In this document: positions 8,918 to 30,142 of the stretch, piece by piece | How the letters are laid out: the number at the start of each line of letters is the position of its first letter | Numbering within the stretch: position 1 is the first letter of the stretch | Assembly (NCBI RefSeq): GCF_000219875.1 | Contig: NC_017167.1 | Coordinates: forward strand, 724,765-788,764 | Origin: Alicyclobacillus acidocaldarius subsp. acidocaldarius Tc-4-1 | Lineage (GTDB): Bacteria; Bacillota; Bacilli; Alicyclobacillales; Alicyclobacillaceae | Length of the DNA: 64,000 bases | Reading direction: 5' to 3' | Position numbers and translations under genes: made by a program | Notes under the pieces: model-generated | What the model was told of the DNA's origin: nothing | What the model saw: only the letters and a program-made list of their open reading frames with translations | The model's database searches: none

Positions 8918-9288
8918 GGGGGCGTTTTGGATTCGACGGGGACTGTTCGAGCATGTACGGCGGGCCGTGGGGCTGCGACCACGTGATGCACGCAGGTCTA
9001 AATTTAACTGGCAAAGCGAATCGCTTTACCACTCAAAACAAGCTCGCTCTCGCTGCTTAATCCAGCGGGACCGTTACGTGATGCGTCGCCTGCGCGCGTC
9101 GCGTAACGTCATCTGAGCAGGCTGGCGGCTTCCCTCGTTCGCGGGGATGCCGCGAGACATGAGCGAACTTGCCTGTGCACCAGCGTGATCGTCCGCGGGT
9201 CACAGGGACTTCAGTAGACGGTCTACGCCCGTAGATGTACATGCGGCGAGGTCTTCGGACGCGGGTTCGATTCCCGTCGCCTCCACCA
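8918..9288 (+). ncRNA. ssrA: Transfer-messenger RNA (tmRNA)
   Basis: Rescues stalled ribosomes by acting first as alanyl-tRNA and then as a short mRNA that adds a degradation tag. The 5' end GGGGGCG pairs with CGCCTCC before the encoded ACCA at the 3' end, with a G-U at the third pair as in other tmRNAs. The TTTTGGATTCGACGGGG D-loop region and the T-arm GCGGGTTCGATTCCCGTC are clear. The tag reading frame lies at 9010-9060. About 371 nucleotides is a normal length for a Firmicute tmRNA. The gene directly follows smpB. Confidence 0.96.
9010..9060 (+). other. tmRNA tag-peptide reading frame
   Basis: The resume codon GGC at 9010 starts a frame ending in TAA at 9058-9060. Added to the alanine carried by tmRNA, the predicted tag is AGKANRFTTQNKLALAA. 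The terminal LALAA matches the proteolysis signal recognised by ClpXP-type proteases. The middle segment is more basic than the Bacillus tag. Confidence 0.88.
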
Positions 9289-11720: not shown

Positions 11721-11785
11721 AAAAACCGGCGTGACTCGAGGGACGGAGGTTTGAAACCTCTCTTCCGTCGAGCGCGCCGGTTTTT
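11721..11785 (+). terminator. Long terminator/attenuator hairpin before dabB
   Basis: AAAAACCGGCG (11721-11731) pairs with CGCCGGTTTTT (11775-11785). Inside, CTCGA and TCGAG plus the AGG-TTTGAAA-CCT helix extend the stem. The T-run lies in the 3' arm, as in intrinsic terminators. It ends only 40 bases before the dabB ATG, so either it ends the mpsC transcript or it is an attenuator for dabB. The 11546-11720 stretch before it has no gene but has a further hairpin, TCAACT/AGTTGA at 11701-11718. Confidence 0.7.
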
Positions 11786-11824
11786 GTCTGTCAATGCCGA
11801 TTGGCGCGGCGTAGGAGGGGACAC

Positions 11825-13338
11825 ATGGATTTCGTGAATGTTCGAGAAGTTGTAGCGGCCTGGGTGTTGGCCTGGATTGCCGCCGGTATGACGGGAGCCT
11901 TGGTTCAGCCTCTGCGTGAACCTTCGCGGCGCATTGGGATTCACCTCGCGAGCCTTGGCCTCGTGAGCCTCGTGTCGGTGGTCGGTCTTGTGACGGGGGC
12001 GACGGGTGTGCCATTGGGCCCGCTTCATCCGACCGGCCTCGGCTGGGCGATTTCGTTGTACATCAGTGCGCTTGGCCTCGTCGTTCTGACCTTTTCCGCA
12101 CGTCACCTGGCCGGAGACGAGCGGTACGGCTCCTATTTGGCTTGGATGACCTGGATTTTGTTTTTGCGAGTGCCGCTTGGATGGCAGACAATGTGTGGTT
12201 TTTCGCCGCGTGTTGGGTGGCGATGGACGCGGGGCTCATTCGGCTCATCGCGATGCAGCGTCGAAGCCGAGCCGCTCGGGCAGTGGCGCGGATGACCTGG
12301 GCGAGGCTCGCACCGAGCATGGCGGGCGTCATTCTTCTTTGCAGCATGGCGGCATGGGCTGGGCAAACGTCGTCGCTCGGTGCGGGGATCCGCGCGCTCG
12401 CCGCGCACCCTGGCGCTAGCCTGGTCGCGGGCCTTCTTCTTGACATCGTTGCGCTCGCTCAGGCGGGCAACTGGCCATCCGGGCGCTGGCTGCTCGACTC
12501 CGCCGTAACGCCGACGCCCGTATCCGCTTTGATGCACGCCGGGTTCGTGAACGCGGGAGGGCTGCTTCTCGCCAAATTTTCTCCCGTTCTCGCGGCAGGG
12601 GGAATCCTCCCTCGCGCGCTGCTTGTGGCCGTGGCATGGATTAGCATCGCCATCGGCACGGGGATCCTTATGATCCATGCGGACTACAAGCGCCAGCTCG
12701 TCGCGTCCACGATGGCCCAAATGGGGCTCATGTTGACGGAGTGCGCTGTGGGTGCGTACGCCGTCGCGATGGTCCACCTGTTGCTGCATGGGCTGTTCAA
12801 AGCGACGCTCTTTCTGCGATCCGGCTCGGCCGTGCCTCGCCCAGACGAGGTATTGGTGAAGGCGGAGGAGCCCTCCCTTCGCTTTCCGTGGTCGCTGCTC
12901 GCTGGCTCAGCGTTGTTCCTGCTGTATGCCCTGCCCCATCCGGCAGATGGGCTTCGCCTTCTGTCCGGTTTGCTGCTTGGCGCGGGATGTGCAGTTGCGC
13001 TCACTTCCGCGATGACCCTACGGGTTGGGCGATGGGCGGGTGCCGCCGCTGTAGTTTTGGCAGGCGCGCTTGCGTTGGCGCTTCGCGACGAATTGATCCG
13101 TGCGTGGGAGGTCCTTCTGGGAACTCCACGACCGGTGGACGAGCAGCTCGCAGTTGCGGCGGCGGGCCTGATGGCGCTTCAGGCCGCGCTCTACGCTTGG
13201 CTTCGCAGTCGTTCTCGCGGTCCATGTTCCGTGCGCGTCTATGCGTGGCTCGCGTATCTCGGCGATGCGAGCCCGCATGCCATCGAAGCGCACCCCGTGG
13301 CGCTTGAAACGCTGGGAGAGGAGGCGATACTTTCGTGA
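11825..13338 (+). pseudogene. dabB: DabB/MpsA: NuoL-like membrane subunit, one apparent frameshift
   Basis: Integral-membrane cation-translocating subunit related to NuoL/NdhF. It works with DabA to take up inorganic carbon or build membrane potential. The first frame from ATG 11825 (GTAGGAGGGG site) gives the N-terminal helices up to YLAWMTWILF. The second frame carries on from FASAAWMADNVWFFAACW to the stop at 13338, including the transporter core PVSALMHAGFVNAGGLLLAKFSPVL with the functional His and HADYKRQLVASTMAQMGLM. The break is at TTTTT 12161-12165; a sixth T restores one 504-residue frame, the normal size for the family. The stop overlaps the dabA GTG start. Either a pseudogene or a homopolymer error. 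Confidence 0.82.
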
Positions 13339-15873
13339 CCTCGTCACTCACGTTGCGTCCTGATCCCTGGACTCCGACATCCGCCGCAGCTGCGGCCGAG
13401 ATAGCGCTCGACGTGAGCGCCGTTCAATGGCCCCTCCCGGTGTGGATTGCGCGGCATCCCTGTCCGGAAATGGAACACACACCCTTTCTTGGGGCGATGC
13501 GGAGACTTCAGGCGCTCGGCGGGGTGCGGCTGTACCCCTCCTGGCGCCTGCTGCAGGACGCGTATTCCCGCGGAGAGATTGATCCAAACGCGCTCAAGGA
13601 TCGTATGAATCGATACCTGGACCACCACGTCCCAGTGCCGCTGCGCGCGGCGTTTGCCCGTATTCAGCCCCGTCTTACGCAAGAGGAGGCCGAGCTTCCC
13701 ATCACTGACGAAGCGGCGGCGCTCGCCGCGCGAACAGCTGCTCGCGTGGATCTGCCGCCCGAGGCGCTTCGCTTTGCGCTCCCGTCCGACGAGTCGCGAT
13801 GGCGCGTCGATGCGCTCACCGCGCGTTACCTTCGCCTGTACCTGGACCGGGGGCAGGCGGCGTGGCCGATGCCAGGGCGAGGTCAGGGACTTTTCTCGGC
13901 TGCCCGCGCGCTCCTCATGCGCGATCCGTCGCTCGGCAAGGTGGAGAGGCGCCGAATGGAGGAGCTGCCGGAAGACCCGGACGCGGCGCTCGCGTTTGGG
14001 CTCGACCGGTTCCGCGTAGCGCCGCGTTTTGCGGCAGATTACTTTCGCGTGCATTATCTGCGCATGCCGGGCTTTGTGGGGGCGCTTCGGTATCGGGATA
14101 GGGAAGACAGAGGCCAAGGCCGCCTGCTGCGGGAGTATCTGGCGTTGCGAGTGCTCCTGGAGTGGGCTTTTGCAGGGCCGGATGGCGTCTTTGCGCCGCA
14201 TCCCGATCTCACCGGCCTGGCTCAGGCGGCTGCGCATGTCGCCGAGGCGGAGCACGACATGGCCGATGATCTCGTCCTGGTCGTGCACCGATACTTGACC
14301 GCGGATCGGTACGCTGTGTGGCTCGAGGCCTGGGAGCAGACGCTCGATGCGCATCTTGTACAGTCTGGCGAGGCTCGCGTTCGCGAGCACGCAGTCGACG
14401 CCCAGTTGCTGTTCTGCATCGACGTCCGATCGGAGCCCTTGCGCCGTCACCTCGAGGCGCTTGGTCCATACGCGACGTACGGATGTGCCGGATTTTTAAC
14501 CTGGCGGTGCAGACACAGATCTTGGAGAGCGCGTATGCGCACCCGAGCTGTCCGGCTATCGTGACACCTGTGGCCCACATGCGGGAGCGAGCGATGGAGC
14601 CGAGCGCTTATCATCGCCGCCTCCGCGTCACAGGTGCTCTGCGGGCGATGTCGCTTTCGTTCAAGAAGTTGAAACAGGCAAGCGCGGCATCCCTCGCTTT
14701 GCCCGAACTGTCGGGCGGATATCTCGCGCTGAACGCGCTTCTCCAGTCGTTTCCGCGCGCATCGGCCCGGCTTCGCGGCTTCTTGCGCAATGGCCTGCCG
14801 CCCGTGGCCACGCAGTGGGAGCCTGCGGGCGAAGCGGATGACTCTGCGGCTTCAAGGCATTCAGCGGTTGGCGAAACTGCGCAGTTGTTCGCGTCGGCAG
14901 CCGCGGACTTGTTTCGCTCGATTGGGCTGACCGCGTTCGCGCCCATTGTCGTTCTCTGCGGCCACGAGGCGCGGGTCGAGAATCATCCACACCGGGCGGC
15001 GCTGGAATGCGGAGCCTGTGGCGGACAATCGGGACGGCACAACGCGCGACTGCTCGCGATGGCGCTTAATCAGGCGGACGTGAGACGCTTGCTTCGTCAT
15101 CATCACGGTCTCCATATTCCGGACGAGACGGTGTTTCTCGCAGCGGTGCACATCACGACGACGGACGAGATCGAGTGGATTGAGCTGCCGGGAATGTCTC
15201 CGGAAATGGAGCGCATGTGGCAGCAGCTCGACAGGGATGTGCGGCGAGCCGGAGCGCACGCGGCCGCCGAGCGCCTCGAGCAACTGCCCGGCGCAAAGGG
15301 GCGGATGGCTCGGCGTGAGGCCGTGCGCCGCGCGAGCGATTGGAGCGAAGCTCGGCCCGAGTGGGGTTGGCGCGCAACCGCGCCTTTTGGATCGGCCGTC
15401 TGCCCCATCTCGATGCAGAGCTGCGCGGCCAGGTGTTCGCGCACGACTACGACTGGCGGTGCGATCCCGACGGGGCCTACCTCCGCGCGATTGTGTCGGG
15501 TCCTGTGACCGTGGCGCAGTGGATCAATCTGCAGTATTACGCATCGACGGTGGCGCCGCACGTTCACGGAGGAGGCAACAAGGTCCTGCAGACGGTCACT
15601 GCCGGCGTGGGTGTGATGCACGGAAACGCGAGCGATCTGCTGCCGGGGCTTCCGTGGCAGTCGATTGCGGCCGACGATGGCCACCTGTACCACCGTCCGC
15701 TGCGGCTCACGGTGGTGATGGAAGTGCCTGTGGCGCAGGCGGCCACCCTGCTCAGAGAGCATGCGGACTTTCGACGAAAGGTGCAGAACGGATGGCTGCG
15801 GCTTTGGGTGCGGGATCCGCAATCGAAGAAATGGTGGCATGCAGCCGAAGTCCTCGGAGAAACCCAGCGGTGA
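13335..15873 (+). pseudogene. dabA: DabA/MpsB (DUF2309): zinc subunit, two apparent frameshifts
   Basis: Peripheral beta-carbonic-anhydrase-like subunit of the DAB inorganic-carbon / Mps system. Three frames together make one DUF2309 protein. Frame 1 (GTG 13335 to about 14500) has LLFCIDVRSEP with zinc ligand Cys and the Asp. Frame 2 (to about 15360) has VVLCGHEARVENHPHRAALECGACGG-type sequence with the His and second Cys ligands. Frame 3 ends at 15873 after QWINLQYYASTV and GNASDLLPGLPWQS. The joints are TTTTT (14496-14500) and GGGG (15362-15365); one added T and one added G give about 846 residues, the usual size. All four zinc-site residues survive, which argues for a recent lesion or a sequencing error. 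Confidence 0.82.
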
Positions 15874-15927
15874 CATGGACGCGTGGTGGTTTGTCACCAG
15901 GCTGTCACGCTTGGTGGTAAGAACCCA

Positions 15928-15956
15928 TTGCGTTACCCCTTGGTGTACCGTATGAT
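15928..15956 (+). promoter_or_regulatory. Promoter of the Pel-like operon
   Basis: TTGCGT (15928-15933) and TATGAT (15951-15956) have an ideal 17-base spacer. The leader that follows contains a nested hairpin: GCAC/GTGC (15981/16016) around ATCGCG/CGCGAT (15991/16004), ending just before the first ATG. Confidence 0.7.
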
Positions 15957-16026
15957 CATGGCGCTAAGGGGTTCGTTCGTGCACAAAGGAATCGCGAAGT
16001 AACCGCGATACCACGGTGCGTTCACG

Positions 16027-16968
16027 ATGGTGAAACTTCATCTTGAAGCGCGGGGTGAGTGTGTGGTCGAACAATCCGCACTGAGCTTCCATCAAGGCAT
16101 GGAGCTCTATGCGATGGGAGAATACAGCGAAGCGCTGAACGCGTTTTTGGAAGAGGCGAGATCGCTCGAGGGGAAGGTGCCGCAGCGGGCCGGGGTCGCA
16201 TACCGCCAGGCGGCGCTCTGCGCGCGACGCCTCGGACGGATGGACGACTTCGACCACTACATGCGGTTGGCTGGGCGGGAATTCTTGCGCGCGAGCGAGC
16301 TGCCGGATCAGCCCGCCCAGCATATCCGCGAGTACTCGCTTCTGGCGGCTCAATGTTTTCTCGCAGTTGAAAACCTGGACCTTTCCTCCAAAAGCGTGAC
16401 GCGAGCCAAGACGGTCGAGGTAGCCTTGGAGGAGCCTATGTCGGAGGCGGTCGCCACGGCTGTGGAAGAAGGGCAAGAGGGACCGTCCGATGCTCGCGCC
16501 GGTTTCGGGATGGGCGCGGTCGAGCCCTTGGACGCAGCGCCGCAACAGGGAGCCATCGGGGCGCACGATGCGAGGCTTGGCGCGGATATCGGTTCCCTCC
16601 GCGAGGTGCCGACAGGAACGGAAGAGAATGAACTGCCGCGAGGTGAAGCGCGAGATCATCTCGCGCACGGCCTACGGGAAGTGGAAACGCGCTTGACAGG
16701 CGCAGTCGCCTTCGAGAGATCGGATGGCGCCCATGTTGGCTCTGCCGCGACCGGATGGCACGGACGGGATCTGGGGACGGGCCAAGATGCCTCGTGGAAC
16801 GAGCCTGCTCAGGTGCCGCGCCGCATGGAGGCGAGTTGGGCGACTGAGGTGCTGGACGAAATTGGCGAGATCCACGCGCAGATGGTGGAGGCGGAGCGCC
16901 GCATGTTGGAACTGGAGCGGCGGCTGCACCGGATGCTGCGTGAACTGACCGCGGAGGGACGCCAGTGA
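16027..16968 (+). CDS. TPR-like / coiled-coil protein preceding PelF
   Basis: No named family recognised. The N-terminal 110 residues look like two or more tetratricopeptide-type helical repeats (FHQGMELYAMGEYSEALNAFLEEARSLEGK). A low-complexity, acidic middle follows, then a C-terminal amphipathic helix likely to form a coiled coil (EIGEIHAQMVEAERRMLELERRL region). There is no membrane segment. It overlaps pelF by 4 bases, so the two are co-translated. In proteobacterial Pel systems a TPR protein, PelE, contacts PelF; this may be a soluble counterpart, which is inference. Start is ATG 16027 or, with the better GGGGTGA site at 16052-16058, GTG 16063. Confidence 0.6.
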   Translation: MVKLHLEARGECVVEQSALSFHQGMELYAMGEYSEALNAFLEEARSLEGKVPQRAGVAYRQAALCARRLGRMDDFDHYMRLAGREFLRASELPDQPAQHIREYSLLAAQCFLAVENLDLSSKSVTRAKTVEVALEEPMSEAVATAVEEGQEGPSDARAGFGMGAVEPLDAAPQQGAIGAHDARLGADIGSLREVPTGTEENELPRGEARDHLAHGLREVETRLTGAVAFERSDGAHVGSAATGWHGRDLGTGQDASWNEPAQVPRRMEASWATEVLDEIGEIHAQMVEAERRMLELERRLHRMLRELTAEGRQ

Positions 16969-18488
16969 GGTCGCGCAAGGCGCCTGTGTCGGACGTGTTG
17001 CTGGCCACCGAAGGCACGTATCCCTACACGCTTGGCGGTGTGAGCGCGTGGGCGGATCGGCTGATCCGCGGGCTTGCCGATCAGCGCTTCACCGTCTACG
17101 CAGTGGTCGCAAATCCTGGCGGGACGCCGCGCTACGCGCTGCCGGAAAACGTGGATCGCCTTCTCATGGTGCCGCTATGGGGGACGGATTGCCACGAAGA
17201 ATTTTCGTGGAATCCGCAGATGTCGTGGAACCTCGGAGTGCGCAAATCGTTTCAGCGCGACTTTCTTCCAGCCTACGAGGCGTTTCTGACGGCCTGCCTT
17301 CGTGCAGCCGAGGCTCGGCTGGACGAAGCGCTGGAGGCGCTTCGGGTGATGGCGGCGTTCGCGGAGCGCGGAAACATGAAATACGCGCTTCGACACGCGA
17401 AGACCTGGGATATCCTGCGATCCCGCCTCTCGGAGCATCCTCTGTTTCGCCACCTCAACTTGTTCGAGGCGGTCGATATCGGCAAGCTCCTGTACCGATA
17501 CTTGGCGCCGCTCGCCTTCCCGGTTCCAGAAGCTCGCATCTACCACGCGTCCGCGGCCGCCTTCTGTGCGCTGCCGCTCATGATGGCCAAAGAGCGGTAT
17601 CACAGGCCACTGCTCGTCACTGAGCATGGGGTGTATTACCGCGAGCGGCTGTTGTCCATCGGGAGGATGGAGAGGGCTGCGCCCTACCGCTATTTCCTCT
17701 CGAGTCTCTACGGCCTAGTGGTGCGCTTAGTGTATCAAGCCGCGGACAGCGTCGCGCCGGTGGCGAAATTCAACGCGCTGTGGGAACAAAAGCTCGGCGT
17801 TCCCCCTGAGCGGATTCATCCCATTCCGAATGGCGTCGATCCGCGTGCGTTTCATATCACGCGCAATCCCGGATCAGGGAACCAGCCGCTTCGCCTCGTG
17901 ATGATCGCGCGCATCGATCCGCTGAAAGACATTCACACCGCCATCCGCGCCATGCGTAGTCTTTATGAGATCCAGGGGAACCATCCTGAGCTCGCAGGCA
18001 TCACACTCACCATCTACGGGCCCGCGCCGGACCAGGCTTATGAGGCCTCTTGCCGCGATCTCGTCCGAGCGTACCGGCTGGAGAACGTCGTTCGCTTCGC
18101 CGGGCCGACGGACGACGTGAACGGCGCCCTCAACAGCGGAGATATCGCGGTCATGTCGAGCTCGTCCGAGGGTTTTCCTTATGCCGCTGTGGAGGCGGTC
18201 ATGGCGGGACGGCCCATCGTGGCGACCAACGTCGGCGGGATGAGCGAGATTGTCCAGCCGCCGTACGGAATCCTCGTGCCGCCGCGTCGACCTCGGGAGC
18301 TGGCAGATGCCATCACGCGGCTGGCGGCAAACCGCGGCCAACTGGCGGCGCTCGGGCGCCTAGGGCGAGAACGCATGCTGGCGGAATTTACACTTGATCG
18401 GTTTCTGGAACGGTATCGGGCGTGGTACAACGCTTGGGCGAGCGAAGGGGAGCGTGGGCATGAGCGCCGAGATCGAGAGACCGTTTGA
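16965..18488 (+). CDS. pelF: PelF-type GT4 glycosyltransferase
   Basis: Cytoplasmic polymerising glycosyltransferase of Pel-like exopolysaccharide synthesis, using UDP-activated (N-acetyl)hexosamines in characterised systems. The 507-residue protein opens with the PelF signature LLATEGTYPYTLGGVSAWADRLI. It contains the paired acceptor-side region around YHASAAAFCALPLMMAKER and LLVTEHGVYYRER, and a GT-B C-terminal donor domain with IPNGVD, ARIDPLKDI and the SSSSEGFPYAAVEAVMAGRPIVATNVGG stretch holding the EX7E pair. It overlaps both neighbours (4 and 29 bases), a tightly coupled operon. Confidence 0.9.
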   Translation: MRSRKAPVSDVLLATEGTYPYTLGGVSAWADRLIRGLADQRFTVYAVVANPGGTPRYALPENVDRLLMVPLWGTDCHEEFSWNPQMSWNLGVRKSFQRDFLPAYEAFLTACLRAAEARLDEALEALRVMAAFAERGNMKYALRHAKTWDILRSRLSEHPLFRHLNLFEAVDIGKLLYRYLAPLAFPVPEARIYHASAAAFCALPLMMAKERYHRPLLVTEHGVYYRERLLSIGRMERAAPYRYFLSSLYGLVVRLVYQAADSVAPVAKFNALWEQKLGVPPERIHPIPNGVDPRAFHITRNPGSGNQPLRLVMIARIDPLKDIHTAIRAMRSLYEIQGNHPELAGITLTIYGPAPDQAYEASCRDLVRAYRLENVVRFAGPTDDVNGALNSGDIAVMSSSSEGFPYAAVEAVMAGRPIVATNVGGMSEIVQPPYGILVPPRRPRELADAITRLAANRGQLAALGRLGRERMLAEFTLDRFLERYRAWYNAWASEGERGHERRDRETV

Positions 18489-20136
18489 AGGGTCGGGCGA
18501 GGACGAGATCCAGCAGCTGCACTCGCTCGCGTACCTCGTGGTGAGTCGACAACCCCATCCGCGCAACGTCCTCGAGGTGGCGGTTCACCTCGAGGACAGC
18601 GGCTATGGGAACGAGGCGGCCCAGGCCCTCGGCTTTCGCGATGTGTTCGACCTCGCCGAAGCGGTTTGGGAACGGATTCCGTTGTACCAGACGCCCGAGG
18701 AGATTGAGAAACCGAGTCCCATCGGCTGGTTTCGGAAGGCGGCGGAACAGTACTTCCGCGGGGTCGGCTACACGGCGCCGTGGATGATGAGCGTGTTGAT
18801 GCTCTTCATCACGCGCGTGGCGCTTTGGTCGTCGCTCTCCGCCTCACAGGAGGTCGCGACGGCGGTCAGCCTCGCGTTTTTCACGGCGACGGTGTGCGCC
18901 GGCGCCGTCTCGCAGGTGTTCGCTCAACGCGCGCTGTTTTACCTGGGCCAGAACAACTGGATCCTCTTCCGCTGGATTTCGACGCGCGCCATTGTGCACG
19001 GTTCAGCCGTGTCCGCGCTCGTCATTGCGCTCGTCTTCCGGTTCGCCATTGCGCCGGCATACGGCCCAGCGTACGGAAACCTCTTTCTCGAATATGCGCT
19101 CGCCATCTACGTCTTTCAGATTGCGCTGGCGCCGCTCTATCTCCTGCGGCGCATCCTCGGGCTCGCCGTGACCACGGCCGTCGCGCTCGTCATCACCTGG
19201 TTCGCCATATGGAACATCGAGCGCGTGAACAGCGGCGCGTATTTCGGCCAGGCCGTTCAACAGGCGCAGATCCTTGGACTGGTGATTGCCGGCGCAGGCG
19301 CGCTCATCGGCGTGTACTCATACGCCGTGTTGCGATCGCGGCGCCAGCTTCGCAGGCTCCTTCCCGAGGAAATCGGCGACGGCCCGCACGATCGCGACGT
19401 GCGCCGTGCCCCTGTACGCGTGCAGATTCCAAGGTTTCTGCCAGTGTGGCGTCAACTCTGGCCGTATGCGCTGTACGGGACGGGCTATTTCTCTATGCTG
19501 TTTGTGGACCGCATCGTGGCAGGTGTGCACTTCGGCGCGCTGCAGGGCGTGCACCATTACGTCTATCCGCCGACGTACGAACTGACGACGGATCTTGCCA
19601 CGCTCGAGCTGTTTCCTATGATGGGGTTCGTTTTCTACTTCATGACCGAGCTCTCGGATCGATTCCTTGGGTGGATGAGGCGCTATCGCGTCACTGAGGC
19701 TGAAGGGTTTCATCGCACGCTGCTTCGCTTCTTTATCACGCGCGTCGTACTGCTTTCCATCATCGGCATCGCGGTGGGGTTCGCGGCTCCCCCCGTCCTT
19801 TTGCACCTGCCGGCTACGCTCATCGCGCCCATTCTGGTGGCCGGTCCGCCGTATCAATGGGCGCTGCACCTCGCGGCCCTCACGTATGGCATTCTGCCCG
19901 TTGGGCTGTTCGCGAGCCAGTTCCTGTTCTTCTGGGGCGTGCGTTTCGCGTCTGCCCTCGCGGTGTGGGCCGGCACGCTCTTCGGCGGCCTGGTGGCGGC
20001 CGTGGCGGTGAATGGCAGCGATGCCTACGCCGTCTACGGCATGGTGACCGCCATCTTCGTGTTTTCGGCGGTCACGGTCATCGTAGGGATCCGAACCGCG
20101 CGAAGGGGAGATGTGCAACTGTATGCCAGCTATTGA
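18460..20136 (+). CDS. pelG: PelG-type exopolysaccharide exporter membrane protein
   Basis: Polytopic membrane partner of PelF, of the MOP/polysaccharide flippase-like group, thought to move the growing polymer across the membrane. The product has 558 residues. It has a soluble N-terminal segment of about 100 residues, then around 12 hydrophobic segments beginning with YTAPWMMSVLMLFITRVALW, and a conserved YALYGTGYFSMLFVDRIVAGV motif in the second half. ATG 18460 is used because it follows AAGGGGAG; the frame is open further upstream inside pelF without a better site. It is coupled to pelF and the next gene by overlaps. Confidence 0.87.
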   Translation: MSAEIERPFEGSGEDEIQQLHSLAYLVVSRQPHPRNVLEVAVHLEDSGYGNEAAQALGFRDVFDLAEAVWERIPLYQTPEEIEKPSPIGWFRKAAEQYFRGVGYTAPWMMSVLMLFITRVALWSSLSASQEVATAVSLAFFTATVCAGAVSQVFAQRALFYLGQNNWILFRWISTRAIVHGSAVSALVIALVFRFAIAPAYGPAYGNLFLEYALAIYVFQIALAPLYLLRRILGLAVTTAVALVITWFAIWNIERVNSGAYFGQAVQQAQILGLVIAGAGALIGVYSYAVLRSRRQLRRLLPEEIGDGPHDRDVRRAPVRVQIPRFLPVWRQLWPYALYGTGYFSMLFVDRIVAGVHFGALQGVHHYVYPPTYELTTDLATLELFPMMGFVFYFMTELSDRFLGWMRRYRVTEAEGFHRTLLRFFITRVVLLSIIGIAVGFAAPPVLLHLPATLIAPILVAGPPYQWALHLAALTYGILPVGLFASQFLFFWGVRFASALAVWAGTLFGGLVAAVAVNGSDAYAVYGMVTAIFVFSAVTVIVGIRTARRGDVQLYASY

Positions 20137-21181
20137 AACTTCGCGCAGCGGGCGATTGCACTATCGCCCCTTGGAGCGCGTCTTTTTGGCAATCACGCTG
20201 GTCATCTCGCTCGCGGTCGCCGCATGGGGCGTTTGGGTTGAGCGGCGCCCGCAGACCATGACGCCGCTTGTGCGCGGCCCGGCCGGCTCGCTCGTTCCGG
20301 TCGTTTCGTCGGTAGTCACCGAATTTGATCAAGACTCGCAGGCGCCACACCAGATCCAGGGCTCGACCTCCTGGCTCGTACCTCCCTATTATCAGTGGGA
20401 GGCGAACGGCAGCGCGGGCGCGAAACTCGGTTTCGTCCGCGTGCGCGGAGGGTTGCTGACGGTGGGCGTGCGAGCTGCTACGCCGGACTTCCGCGGCTAT
20501 TTCCTCACGACGAGGGATCCGTTCCCGGCAGGATGGTATGCGCACACCTGGGCTGTTTCTCCGCCCGCGGTTACGTCGGGCGTGGGAGAGTTGGTGTTTG
20601 CCGTGCAGACGGCGACGACGGACCAGACGGGGCTCATCAACTACGTGTTTGTGTCCCTCGTGACGACGCGCGTCCGCGGTCATCTTCGTTCAACGTGGGA
20701 GATTGGCTACGCCTACGGATACGAGAAAAACGCGCACAGCGTGATTCTGAAAAAGATTCCCGAGAGCGCAGTTCAACCTCAAGGCGGAATGTATCACCTG
20801 GTGATTTGGACGAATGGCTCCACGGCGTATCGCGCCTGGATCAACGGCGTGGAGGTGTACGCATCCGACACACTCCACATGCAGATTGCGCCGCCATTTG
20901 ACGCGTACCTGGAGGTTCAGGAAAAGAACACGCCGTACGCGGTGCAGTACCGGCGTTTCGCCGCCGTGCAAGCAGGCGGTGTCCTTCTGCGCGGCCTCCC
21001 CGCCCGCGCGGAAGTCTTGTGGCAGGGACACGCGTATCGCCCGAAGAGAGGTATCGTGGTGTTGCCCGTGTCCGCGCAGGCGGGAGAGGCAACCGGGCGC
21101 CTGTCTATCGCCATGGATGGCAAGGAGACAGGTGGCGAAGTGACGCTCTGGTCCGGGCAGGAGCTCACGTACGAGTCGTGA
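20123..21181 (+). CDS. Membrane-anchored beta-sandwich-like protein of the Pel-like operon
   Basis: Function unknown. The 352-residue product has one N-terminal membrane segment (about residues 20-38, VFLAITLVISLAVAAWGVW) and then an exported part rich in alternating hydrophobic/polar stretches, Trp and Tyr. This looks like a concanavalin/LamG-like jelly-roll carbohydrate-binding fold (VRVRGGLLTVGVRAA, MYHLVIWTNGSTAYRAWINGVEVY). It overlaps pelG by 14 bases and ends the operon. A role in holding or processing the exported glycan is an inference from position. ATG 20123 fits AAGGGGAG at 20103-20110 better than ATG 20111. Confidence 0.65.
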   Translation: MPAIETSRSGRLHYRPLERVFLAITLVISLAVAAWGVWVERRPQTMTPLVRGPAGSLVPVVSSVVTEFDQDSQAPHQIQGSTSWLVPPYYQWEANGSAGAKLGFVRVRGGLLTVGVRAATPDFRGYFLTTRDPFPAGWYAHTWAVSPPAVTSGVGELVFAVQTATTDQTGLINYVFVSLVTTRVRGHLRSTWEIGYAYGYEKNAHSVILKKIPESAVQPQGGMYHLVIWTNGSTAYRAWINGVEVYASDTLHMQIAPPFDAYLEVQEKNTPYAVQYRRFAAVQAGGVLLRGLPARAEVLWQGHAYRPKRGIVVLPVSAQAGEATGRLSIAMDGKETGGEVTLWSGQELTYES

Positions 21182-28521: not shown

Positions 28522-28527
28522 TAGTGA

Positions 28528-28635
28528 CACAAGGTCTCTAGGGTTCCGCCGGCAAGGCCGGGTCTGGTCCGAGAGAGGCCAGCTCTCGAGCGCTCGAGAG
28601 CCGCACGGAGGGATAAAAGCCCGGGAGGTCCTGCT
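28528..28635 (+). promoter_or_regulatory. Guanidine-I (ykkC class) riboswitch
   Basis: The aptamer carries the strongly conserved blocks of the ykkC/guanidine-I class in order: CTAGGGTTCCG (28538-28548), CTGGTCCGAGAGAGG (28564-28578), and ACGGAGGGATAAAAGCCCGG (28605-28624). A variable helix (CTCTCGAG-C-GCTCGAGAG-type) lies between the last two. This class binds guanidinium and turns expression on. Its 3' side overlaps the terminator below. The operon it precedes encodes the guanidine carboxylase pathway, consistent with the known regulon. Confidence 0.94.
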
Positions 28636-28714: not shown

Positions 28715-30142
28715 GTGGAGGATTCCGTGGCTTTTGTCGAGGCCGCGCGCCTGGAACATCTGGGCTATCGACAGCAGTTGAGCCGGAAACTCAGTCTGCG
28801 TGACGTGGTGGGGCTCGCCATCGCCAACGTGTCGCTGACGATGGCGGTCTTGCTCCTGACGTCCGGCGTGTTTTCCATCGGCGGCACCTTTGCCATCGGG
28901 GCCGACGTCATTCTGGGCGTCGTCGTCATTCTCATCTCCATGTGCCTGGCGGAATTGGGGTCCATGTTTCCGGTGGCGGGCGGCATGTACTCGCTGGTTC
29001 GTTTCGTGCTGCCAGCGCCCCTCGCCTTCGTGACCCTGTTCAATTACCTGATTCAGGGCGTCATCCTGCCGGCGAGCATCGCGCTCGGGATCGGCCAGTT
29101 CGTCAAGGACCTCTTTCCTCATGTGCCGCTGTCGGAGCCGATGATTGCGCTCGTCTCCGTGGCCGTCGCCGTGGCGATTGGCGTCGTCCGCGTGGAACTC
29201 GGCGCGTACGTGACCATGGCCATGGTGTTCGTGGAACTGCTCGTGCTGTCGACGGTCACGGTGGCTGCCTGGATCCACCCGCATCAGTCGCTCTGGGCGG
29301 TGACGTTTCACCCTGTGTATCTGGATGGCAGCGCACTGCGGCCCGTGACCATCGCGATGATGGCGGCGAGTCTCGCGCCGGCCTTTAACATCATCAACGG
29401 TTACGACGCGACGCTCGGGTTTGCTGAGGAACTGGTGGGTGGGCCGAAAAAGCTCGCACGCGCTGTCATCACCGCTGCCACGACGGCCGCCGTTGCCATT
29501 GTCGTCCCGCTCACCTCGGCCGTGGTCACCGCGCCCAACTTGAAGGCGTTCTTCGGCGCCGCGAGTCCCGTCATCTATGCGGTCAAATCGTCCCTCGGCC
29601 CGAATTTCCGGATTGTTCTGGATATCGGGGTGTGCGTCGCGCTGTTCAACTCCATGCTGGTCTACTTCATGTACTTCGGCCGCGTGTTTTACACCACCGG
29701 GCGCGACGGCCTGTGGTGGCGATGGGCGAATCGACGCGTGGGACAGGTGAACCGCTTCAAGGCGCCAGGGCTCTGTGTGCTCCTGCTTGGGCTGCCGACC
29801 GCCGTGCTGCTATTCATGAGCCAATTGAACTGGCTCATCATCTTCTCCGGCACGGTCACGACCGTCGTGTACTTCTTCATCGGCCTGGCCGCCATCTGGA
29901 GCCGGGTGAAGTTCCGGCATGACCCCCGTCCCTATCGAATGCCTGCATGGCCCATCGCGCCCGCGGTGGTGACCTTGTTCACCGCCTTCGCCATCGTCAC
30001 GCAGGAGGCGCAATACCTGCTCGGCGAGGCCGTGCTCGCGGCGGCTTCCCTCGCGTGCTACGCGCTGTCGCGCTGGGTTTGGCGATCGCGCCAGGCTGCG
30101 GACGGCGAGGCCGAATGGCAGGAGGACGCCGTCAGCGGCTGA
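28715..30142 (+). CDS. APC-family permease, probable guanidine or related cation transporter
   Basis: Polytopic amino acid-polyamine-organocation permease of 475 residues with about 12 hydrophobic segments. It has the family N-terminal motif LSLRDVVGLAIANVS and the helix 6-region sequence APAFNIINGYDATLGFAEE. As first gene behind a guanidine-I riboswitch and in front of the carboxylase pathway, it most likely imports guanidine or a guanidino compound; this is contextual. GTG 28715 is chosen because GAGGAGGG at 28701-28708 is 6 bases away; ATG 28697 lies before that site. Confidence 0.84.
   Translation: MEDSVAFVEAARLEHLGYRQQLSRKLSLRDVVGLAIANVSLTMAVLLLTSGVFSIGGTFAIGADVILGVVVILISMCLAELGSMFPVAGGMYSLVRFVLPAPLAFVTLFNYLIQGVILPASIALGIGQFVKDLFPHVPLSEPMIALVSVAVAVAIGVVRVELGAYVTMAMVFVELLVLSTVTVAAWIHPHQSLWAVTFHPVYLDGSALRPVTIAMMAASLAPAFNIINGYDATLGFAEELVGGPKKLARAVITAATTAAVAIVVPLTSAVVTAPNLKAFFGAASPVIYAVKSSLGPNFRIVLDIGVCVALFNSMLVYFMYFGRVFYTTGRDGLWWRWANRRVGQVNRFKAPGLCVLLLGLPTAVLLFMSQLNWLIIFSGTVTTVVYFFIGLAAIWSRVKFRHDPRPYRMPAWPIAPAVVTLFTAFAIVTQEAQYLLGEAVLAAASLACYALSRWVWRSRQAADGEAEWQEDAVSG

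What the first reader, a model, noticed from the sequence alone, without database searches (positions are those of the whole stretch)
15928..21181. Reduced Pel-like exopolysaccharide locus
PelF and PelG are clear, but no PelD (c-di-GMP receptor), no membrane PelE and no PelA hydrolase/deacetylase accompany them. Instead the unit has a soluble TPR/coiled-coil protein ahead of pelF and a single-pass, beta-sandwich exported protein after pelG, all joined by overlaps. This could be a minimal synthase-exporter with different control and a different cell-surface partner.
Basis: partly seen in the sequence, partly recalled or inferred. Interest (0 to 1): 0.68.

Follow-up and report, generated by a model that had tools for sequence, protein, structure and literature searches.

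The report
Pel-like sugar-polymer exporter without Pel partners
A heat- and acid-loving bacterium carries a conserved four-gene unit that looks like the core of a known biofilm-sugar machine (a sugar-linking enzyme and its export channel) but with other helper proteins and no sign of the usual control and trimming parts, so it probably makes and exports an unknown surface sugar in its own way.

Summary
The four-gene unit is real: TPR-like/coiled-coil protein (start more likely 16063 than 16027), pelF (16965-18488), pelG-like (18460-20136), single-pass exported protein P4 (20123-21181). Order and overlaps (4, 23-29, 14 bp) are kept in relatives, under purifying selection. PelF passes the curated PelF model. 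PelG is not 'clear': no curated model hits it; it is a distant PelG by intermediates, profile comparison and a 12-helix MOP-type fold, with an extra N-terminal helical domain. PelD, PelE and PelA-deacetylase profiles find nothing in the genome, so it is not filed as a Pel system. It belongs to a second PelF/PelG lineage, seen in Bacillota and two Acidobacteria, marked by that N-domain and a WGT insertion in PelF. The 18 other Bacillota loci found carry a longer PelF, a small protein with a conserved tail, PelG and a ~660-aa membrane protein; the window's clade lacks the small protein and the membrane protein and has a separate TPR-like protein and P4. Most likely it makes and exports a surface glycan without PelD. 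Product, P4's fold and all protein contacts are untested. New variant of a known kind; interest 0.5.

The parts
15928..15956 (+). promoter-like TTGCGT-17-TATGAT
   Evidence: read from the sequence; TTG and TAT..T positions and spacing align without gaps in four genomes; below the threshold of the promoter scan
16063..16968 (+). TPR-like/coiled-coil soluble protein (301 aa from GTG 16063; the ATG at 16027 would give 313 aa)
   Evidence: GTG with a preceding GGTGA kept in four genomes; N-terminal ~130 residues strongly conserved, middle variable, coiled-coil-like end by eye; no TM segment; TPR hits under cut-off
16965..18488 (+). pelF-like GT4 glycosyltransferase (507 aa)
   Evidence: NF038011 171 bits, cut-off 100; R316, K321, E402, E410 identical in 16 of 16 PelFs compared
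18460..20136 (+). pelG-like MOP-type exporter (558 aa)
   Evidence: AF2 pLDDT 81, pTM 0.80, 12 long helices after an N-domain; Foldseek E 2e-5 to 9e-4 to MATE, MurJ and WzxE chains, TM-scores only about 0.4-0.5; profile match to canonical PelG P 1.1e-5
18496..18669 (+). N-terminal cytosolic helical domain of the PelG-like protein (residues 13-70), hallmark of this lineage
   Evidence: L44, E45 and G48 invariant in 10 rows; P34, E45, G48, G58 in at least 90% of 23 rows, one of them truncated before this domain; present in Bacillota and in the two Acidobacteria; four helices in the model
20123..21181 (+). single-pass exported protein P4 (352 aa; start at the second ATG)
   Evidence: start kept in five genomes; one TM segment, residues 20-38; beta-rich outer part, of which only about 286-352 is modelled with some confidence; no Pfam match up to E 0.1, no significant PDB match by sequence or fold, no plasmid match

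Best explanation
The unit encodes a PelF/PelG secretion machine of a second PelF/PelG lineage that has no PelD receptor. Inferred mechanism: PelF, a soluble GT4 enzyme with an intact donor site, extends a glycan from a nucleotide sugar in the cytosol; the TPR-like/coiled-coil protein holds PelF near the membrane, probably by docking on the extra N-terminal helical domain of PelG, doing the job that membrane PelE and PelD do in Pel systems; the 12-helix MOP-type PelG passes the chain through the membrane; the membrane-tethered beta-rich protein P4 meets the chain outside, in the place that PelA-deacetylase is modelled to take beside PelG in Bacillus cereus, and binds or retains it at the cell surface instead of deacetylating it. 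Shown here: gene set, conservation, PelF family, exporter fold, absence of PelD, PelE and PelA-deacetylase by profile search. Inferred: polymer chemistry, docking, and P4's role.
For: PelF equivalog model passed and donor-site residues invariant. Exporter fold and distant PelG homology. PelF and PelG occur together: PelF over cut-off in 10 of 61 relatives, PelG in 11 of 61, the odd one (G013) having its contig end inside pelG. In all 20 non-window-type loci a PelF lies within 3 kb upstream of PelG. Four genes kept as a block with like overlaps under purifying selection. In 18 of those 20 loci PelF has a C-terminal extension that by eye looks TPR-like (the one scanned had TPR hits under cut-off), so such modules go with PelF in this lineage. 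In B. cereus the single TM helix of PelADA is modelled against PelG (PMC13254593, passages), the topology that P4 has.
Against: No chemistry is known; the donor sugar may not be UDP-GalNAc. The relation between the first protein and the PelF extensions is weak (hhalign P 0.007 over 26 columns; 7 controls 0.1-0.72). P4 has no recognised fold. The window-clade PelG profile alone aligns to canonical PelG only over 80 columns at P 0.01. The nearest solved folds include lipid-linked-sugar flippases, which suits a rival. One relative (G009) has lost the unit and most of the genus lacks it, so it is dispensable.
Confidence: 0.55

Rival explanations
1. PelF makes a lipid-linked or short glycan and the PelG-like protein acts as a flippase (like Wzx or MurJ); P4 is the acceptor or a ligase-like factor outside.
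For: The structural matches of the PelG-like model are MATE, MurJ and WzxE; no PelA-deacetylase or PelD; sister loci carry a ~660-aa multi-pass membrane protein with conserved SD and HDGxYPQG motifs that by eye resembles GT-C enzymes, which use lipid-linked sugars (recalled, not tested; no PDB match by sequence; the one member scanned has no Pfam match worth naming).
Against: PelF passes the PelF model's cut-off and no other model's in the listed hits; the window clade has no copy of the 660-aa protein (0 of 5); all MOP proteins share this fold, so the fold match does not separate the two readings.
Confidence: 0.25
2. A true Pel locus: it makes Pel (partly deacetylated GalNAc polymer) under c-di-GMP with unrecognised PelD, PelE and PelA.
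For: PelF passes the equivalog model; the genome has 10 GGDEF matches, so c-di-GMP is probably made.
Against: PelD_GGDEF, PelA-deacetylase and PelE searches find nothing in the window's genome; in B. [quoted passage not shown] canonical PelFs split off at 100/100. Very divergent versions could escape these profiles.
Confidence: 0.08
3. A decaying remnant without function.
For: The genes just upstream are frameshifted in this strain; G009 keeps only a ~100-bp DNA scrap of the last gene at this place; 10 of 15 same-genus genomes lack the unit.
Against: All four genes are open with dN/dS 0.09-0.31 and like overlaps in relatives.
Confidence: 0.05

Closest known systems
Gram-positive Pel (pelDEADAFG, Bacillus cereus ATCC 10987; PMC7112168)
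   Same: PelF-family GT4 followed directly by a PelG-like 12-helix MOP exporter; a single-pass extracytoplasmic partner encoded in the same unit
   Different: no PelD, PelE or PelA-deacetylase found in locus or genome; extra PelG N-domain; separate soluble TPR-like protein; the PelA-deacetylase profile does not match P4
[quoted passage not shown] legend read in a passage, figure not held)
   Same: pelF and pelG without other recognised pel genes
   Different: in the passages seen neither this lineage nor Alicyclobacillus is described; whether its examples overlap with this lineage could not be checked
Unnamed Bacillota cassette: PelF with C-terminal extension, small protein with RYIVGK-type tail, PelG with N-domain, ~660-aa membrane protein
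   Same: same PelF subfamily (WGT insertion) and same PelG N-domain
   Different: the window clade has neither the small protein nor the 660-aa protein anywhere in 5 genomes; it has P4 and a separate TPR-like protein

Membership tests
Pel biosynthetic system | PelF-family glycosyltransferase | tested here: met
   NF038011 171 bits, cut-off 100
Pel biosynthetic system | PelG exporter (PF16933) | tested here: inconclusive
   window protein no hit at E<=1; three of five homologues hit under cut-off; family profile P 1.1e-5 against canonical PelG
Pel biosynthetic system | PelD receptor | tested here: not met
   PF16963 over cut-off in 0 of 11 genomes; one weak match in G014 (E 0.002, a stop inside)
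Pel biosynthetic system | PelE | tested here: not met
   profile A13: 0 of 5 window-clade genomes; a weak match in G055 (E 0.003); control G164 found, but it is in the profile
Pel biosynthetic system | PelA deacetylase | tested here: not met
   profile A12: 0 of 7 genomes of this lineage; control G164 found, but it is in the profile
Pel biosynthetic system | PelA glycoside hydrolase domain elsewhere in the genome | not tested
Pel biosynthetic system | product is a partly deacetylated GalNAc polymer | not testable with these tools
   needs glycan chemistry
MOP superfamily | 12-helix MOP fold | tested here: met
N-domain PelF/PelG lineage (named here) | PelG N-terminal helical domain and PelF WGT insertion | tested here: met
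   WGT in 10 of 10 lineage PelFs aligned and 0 of 6 canonical

The most novel reading that the evidence does not exclude
There are two evolutionarily separate PelF/PelG machines. The second, in Bacillota and some Acidobacteria, is wired to cytosolic TPR-like and coiled-coil proteins through a dedicated N-terminal domain on the exporter rather than to the c-di-GMP receptor PelD, makes a different polymer, and in the Alicyclobacillus acidocaldarius group hands it to a clade-specific surface protein.
Probability: 0.45. Interest if true: 0.65.

Novelty: new variant of a known kind. Interest (0 to 1): 0.5.

Why it matters
Pel is a model for how a second messenger switches on polymer synthesis. A PelF/PelG pair that works without PelD, PelE or PelA would show what the minimal synthase-exporter is and give a natural comparison of which parts control and which parts polymerise. 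It also points to an uncharacterised exopolysaccharide system in many Bacillota whose exporter, small protein and ~660-aa membrane protein got no NCBIfam name in the members scanned.

Tried and rejected
Riboswitch or other RNA control upstream: Rfam at E<=10 on 15600-16300 gave two low-scoring hits of unlikely kinds; rejected. Canonical pel genes elsewhere in the genome: not found. The 660-aa and small-protein genes elsewhere in the window clade: 0 of 5 for each; the two control genomes were found by both, but both are in the first profile and one (G055) is in the second, so only G018 is an independent control. First protein as a detached PelF tail: only weak support; kept as an idea. P4 as a lectin- or LamG-type domain: no support. 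Reduction from the Alicyclobacillaceae cassette: the trees place the window clade outside it, but on long branches, and the program warned that the canonical and window long branches may attract each other; the second tree has no canonical rows and is unrooted. Plasmid relatives of P4: none; P4 was searched in 61 genomes only, not across the phylum. Literature: the listings of searches showed no paper on this lineage; several listings were cut (20 of 23, 15 of 16,399, 8 of 173 and 8 of 26), and the library holds open-licence PMC papers only.
Full report
What is there. Window 15928-21181 holds four genes on the plus strand. A promoter-like TTGCGT-17-TATGAT starts at 15928; its TTG and TAT..T positions and their spacing align without gaps in four genomes, but the site is too weak for the promoter scan. 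Gene 1 (GTG 16063 to 16968; GGTGA and GTG kept in four genomes) is a soluble protein with a well-conserved N-terminal part that has weak TPR hits (under cut-off), a variable middle and an end that looks coiled-coil by eye. Gene 2 (16965-18488) is PelF by the NCBIfam equivalog model (171 bits, cut-off 100). Gene 3 (18460-20136) is an exporter. Gene 4 (P4, 20123-21181) has one TM segment and a beta-rich outer part. Overlaps are 4, 29 and 14 bp; in three relatives they are 4, 23-26 and 14 bp.

Where it occurs. The window lies in a 3,124,048-base chromosome. Five of 15 same-genus genomes, the window's own included, carry the PelG-like gene, and P4 is in the same five plus a scrap in a sixth, G009. 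In G009 the unit is missing and about 100 bp of P4 DNA remain between the upstream gene and the next gene, read in broken frames at the protein level: a loss, so the unit is dispensable. All pairs compared have dN/dS of 0.09-0.31.

PelF. The residues that correspond by motif and spacing to the proposed donor-site residues of P. aeruginosa PelF (E405, R325, K330; PMC10185581, one passage) are identical in 16 of 16 PelFs aligned. I did not align the P. aeruginosa sequence itself. A WGT-containing insertion is in 10 of 10 PelFs of this lineage and 0 of 6 canonical ones. In a 36-row tree the 6 canonical PelFs separate at 100/100.

PelG. The protein hits no curated model. Three of five homologues scanned hit PF16933 under its cut-off over nearly its full length; the other two do not. 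A 23-row family profile aligns end to end with an 8-row canonical PelG profile (P 1.1e-5, probability 82), a 10-row one at P 2.4e-4 (probability 44), and the 4-row window-clade profile only over 80 columns at P 0.01; a flippase-like single sequence (named by eye) as control gave 0.36, a weak control since it is not a profile. The AF2 model (pLDDT 81, pTM 0.80) shows a small N-terminal helical domain and 12 long helices; 31 PDB chains match at E<=0.001, all of MOP-superfamily kinds such as MATE, MurJ and WzxE, with moderate TM-scores of about 0.4-0.5. PelG of B. cereus is described as a 12-helix bundle of the same superfamily (PMC13254593, passages). Among phylum samples, 8 of 398 genomes had this PelG lineage and 9 of 299 had PF16933, both at E<=1e-10; no genome is among the positives of both, but the two samples are not the same and their negatives are listed only in part.

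The wider lineage. A pattern-based scan of named genomes gave 22 loci: two are window-type, 18 are other Bacillota and two Acidobacteria. In all 20 others a PelF lies within 3 kb upstream of PelG; 18 of 20 have the small protein; all 20 have at least a partial match to the ~660-aa membrane protein, weak and partial in the two Acidobacteria and split over three ORFs in L051; in L061 it lies upstream of pelF. PelF has a C-terminal extension of more than 60 residues in 18 of the 20; the two Acidobacteria and the window-type PelFs do not. In 9 of 14 loci examined a further coiled-coil-looking gene lies between pelF and the small gene. An exosortase lies next to the cassette in G016 and by eye in G043. 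The window clade has neither the small protein nor the membrane protein anywhere (0 of 5 each).

Absence of Pel parts. PelD_GGDEF is over its cut-off in 0 of 11 carriers, with one weak match in G014 that has a stop inside. PelA-deacetylase and PelE profiles match 0 of 5 window-clade genomes; PelE has one weak match (E 0.003) in G055; the control genome was found by both but its sequences are in the profiles. A PelA-type hydrolase was not searched for. GGDEF domains exist (10 matches in the genome). In B. [quoted passage not shown] section 6 read). So this is not filed as a Pel system; it works like its synthase-exporter core.

P4. The AF2 model from three sequences is poor (pLDDT 46) and its best PDB match has E 0.1. 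No sequence relatives outside the genus were found among 61 genomes, the PDB, Pfam or plasmids. Its place beside PelG is by analogy with PelADA, whose TM helix is modelled against PelG (PMC13254593, passages).

History. In a PelF+PelG tree of 24 rows the window clade (4 rows) is one side of a long branch (100/100), apart from the 18-row Bacillota group (98/100) that holds the other Alicyclobacillaceae. The tree is unrooted and the long branches limit what can be said of order and direction of change.

Noticed in passing
window 11747-15870: Two genes just upstream (dabB- and dabA-like; names recalled) are split over 2 and 3 frames in this strain, while both are open in three relatives (L022, L023, L025): likely frameshifted here.
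   Followed up: partly
window 28527-28629: Guanidine-I riboswitch (96 bits, gathering 63) ahead of a permease-like gene (named by eye) ending at 30142, not the usual downstream gene as I recall it.
   Followed up: no
window 8918-9288: tmRNA gene with tag GKANRFTTQNKLALAA.
   Followed up: no
L028:14041-15639 and L029:16525-17568: Exosortase-like genes near the PelF/PelG cassette in two relatives (L028 by Pfam and NCBIfam; L029 by eye), each with a small exported-looking protein next to it.
   Followed up: partly
L044-L062, C-terminus of the small protein: A ~55-residue conserved tail (RYIVGK..G..L....G..I...G..IT....A...GKL.ELI..M) with no Pfam match of note in the members scanned and a weak PDB match to an RNA polymerase beta fragment (E 0.075).
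   Followed up: partly
L026:6952-8910 and relatives (alignment A7): A ~660-aa multi-pass membrane protein family with invariant SD and HDGxYPQG motifs; no PDB match by profile, no NCBIfam match in two members, no Pfam match of note in one.
   Followed up: partly
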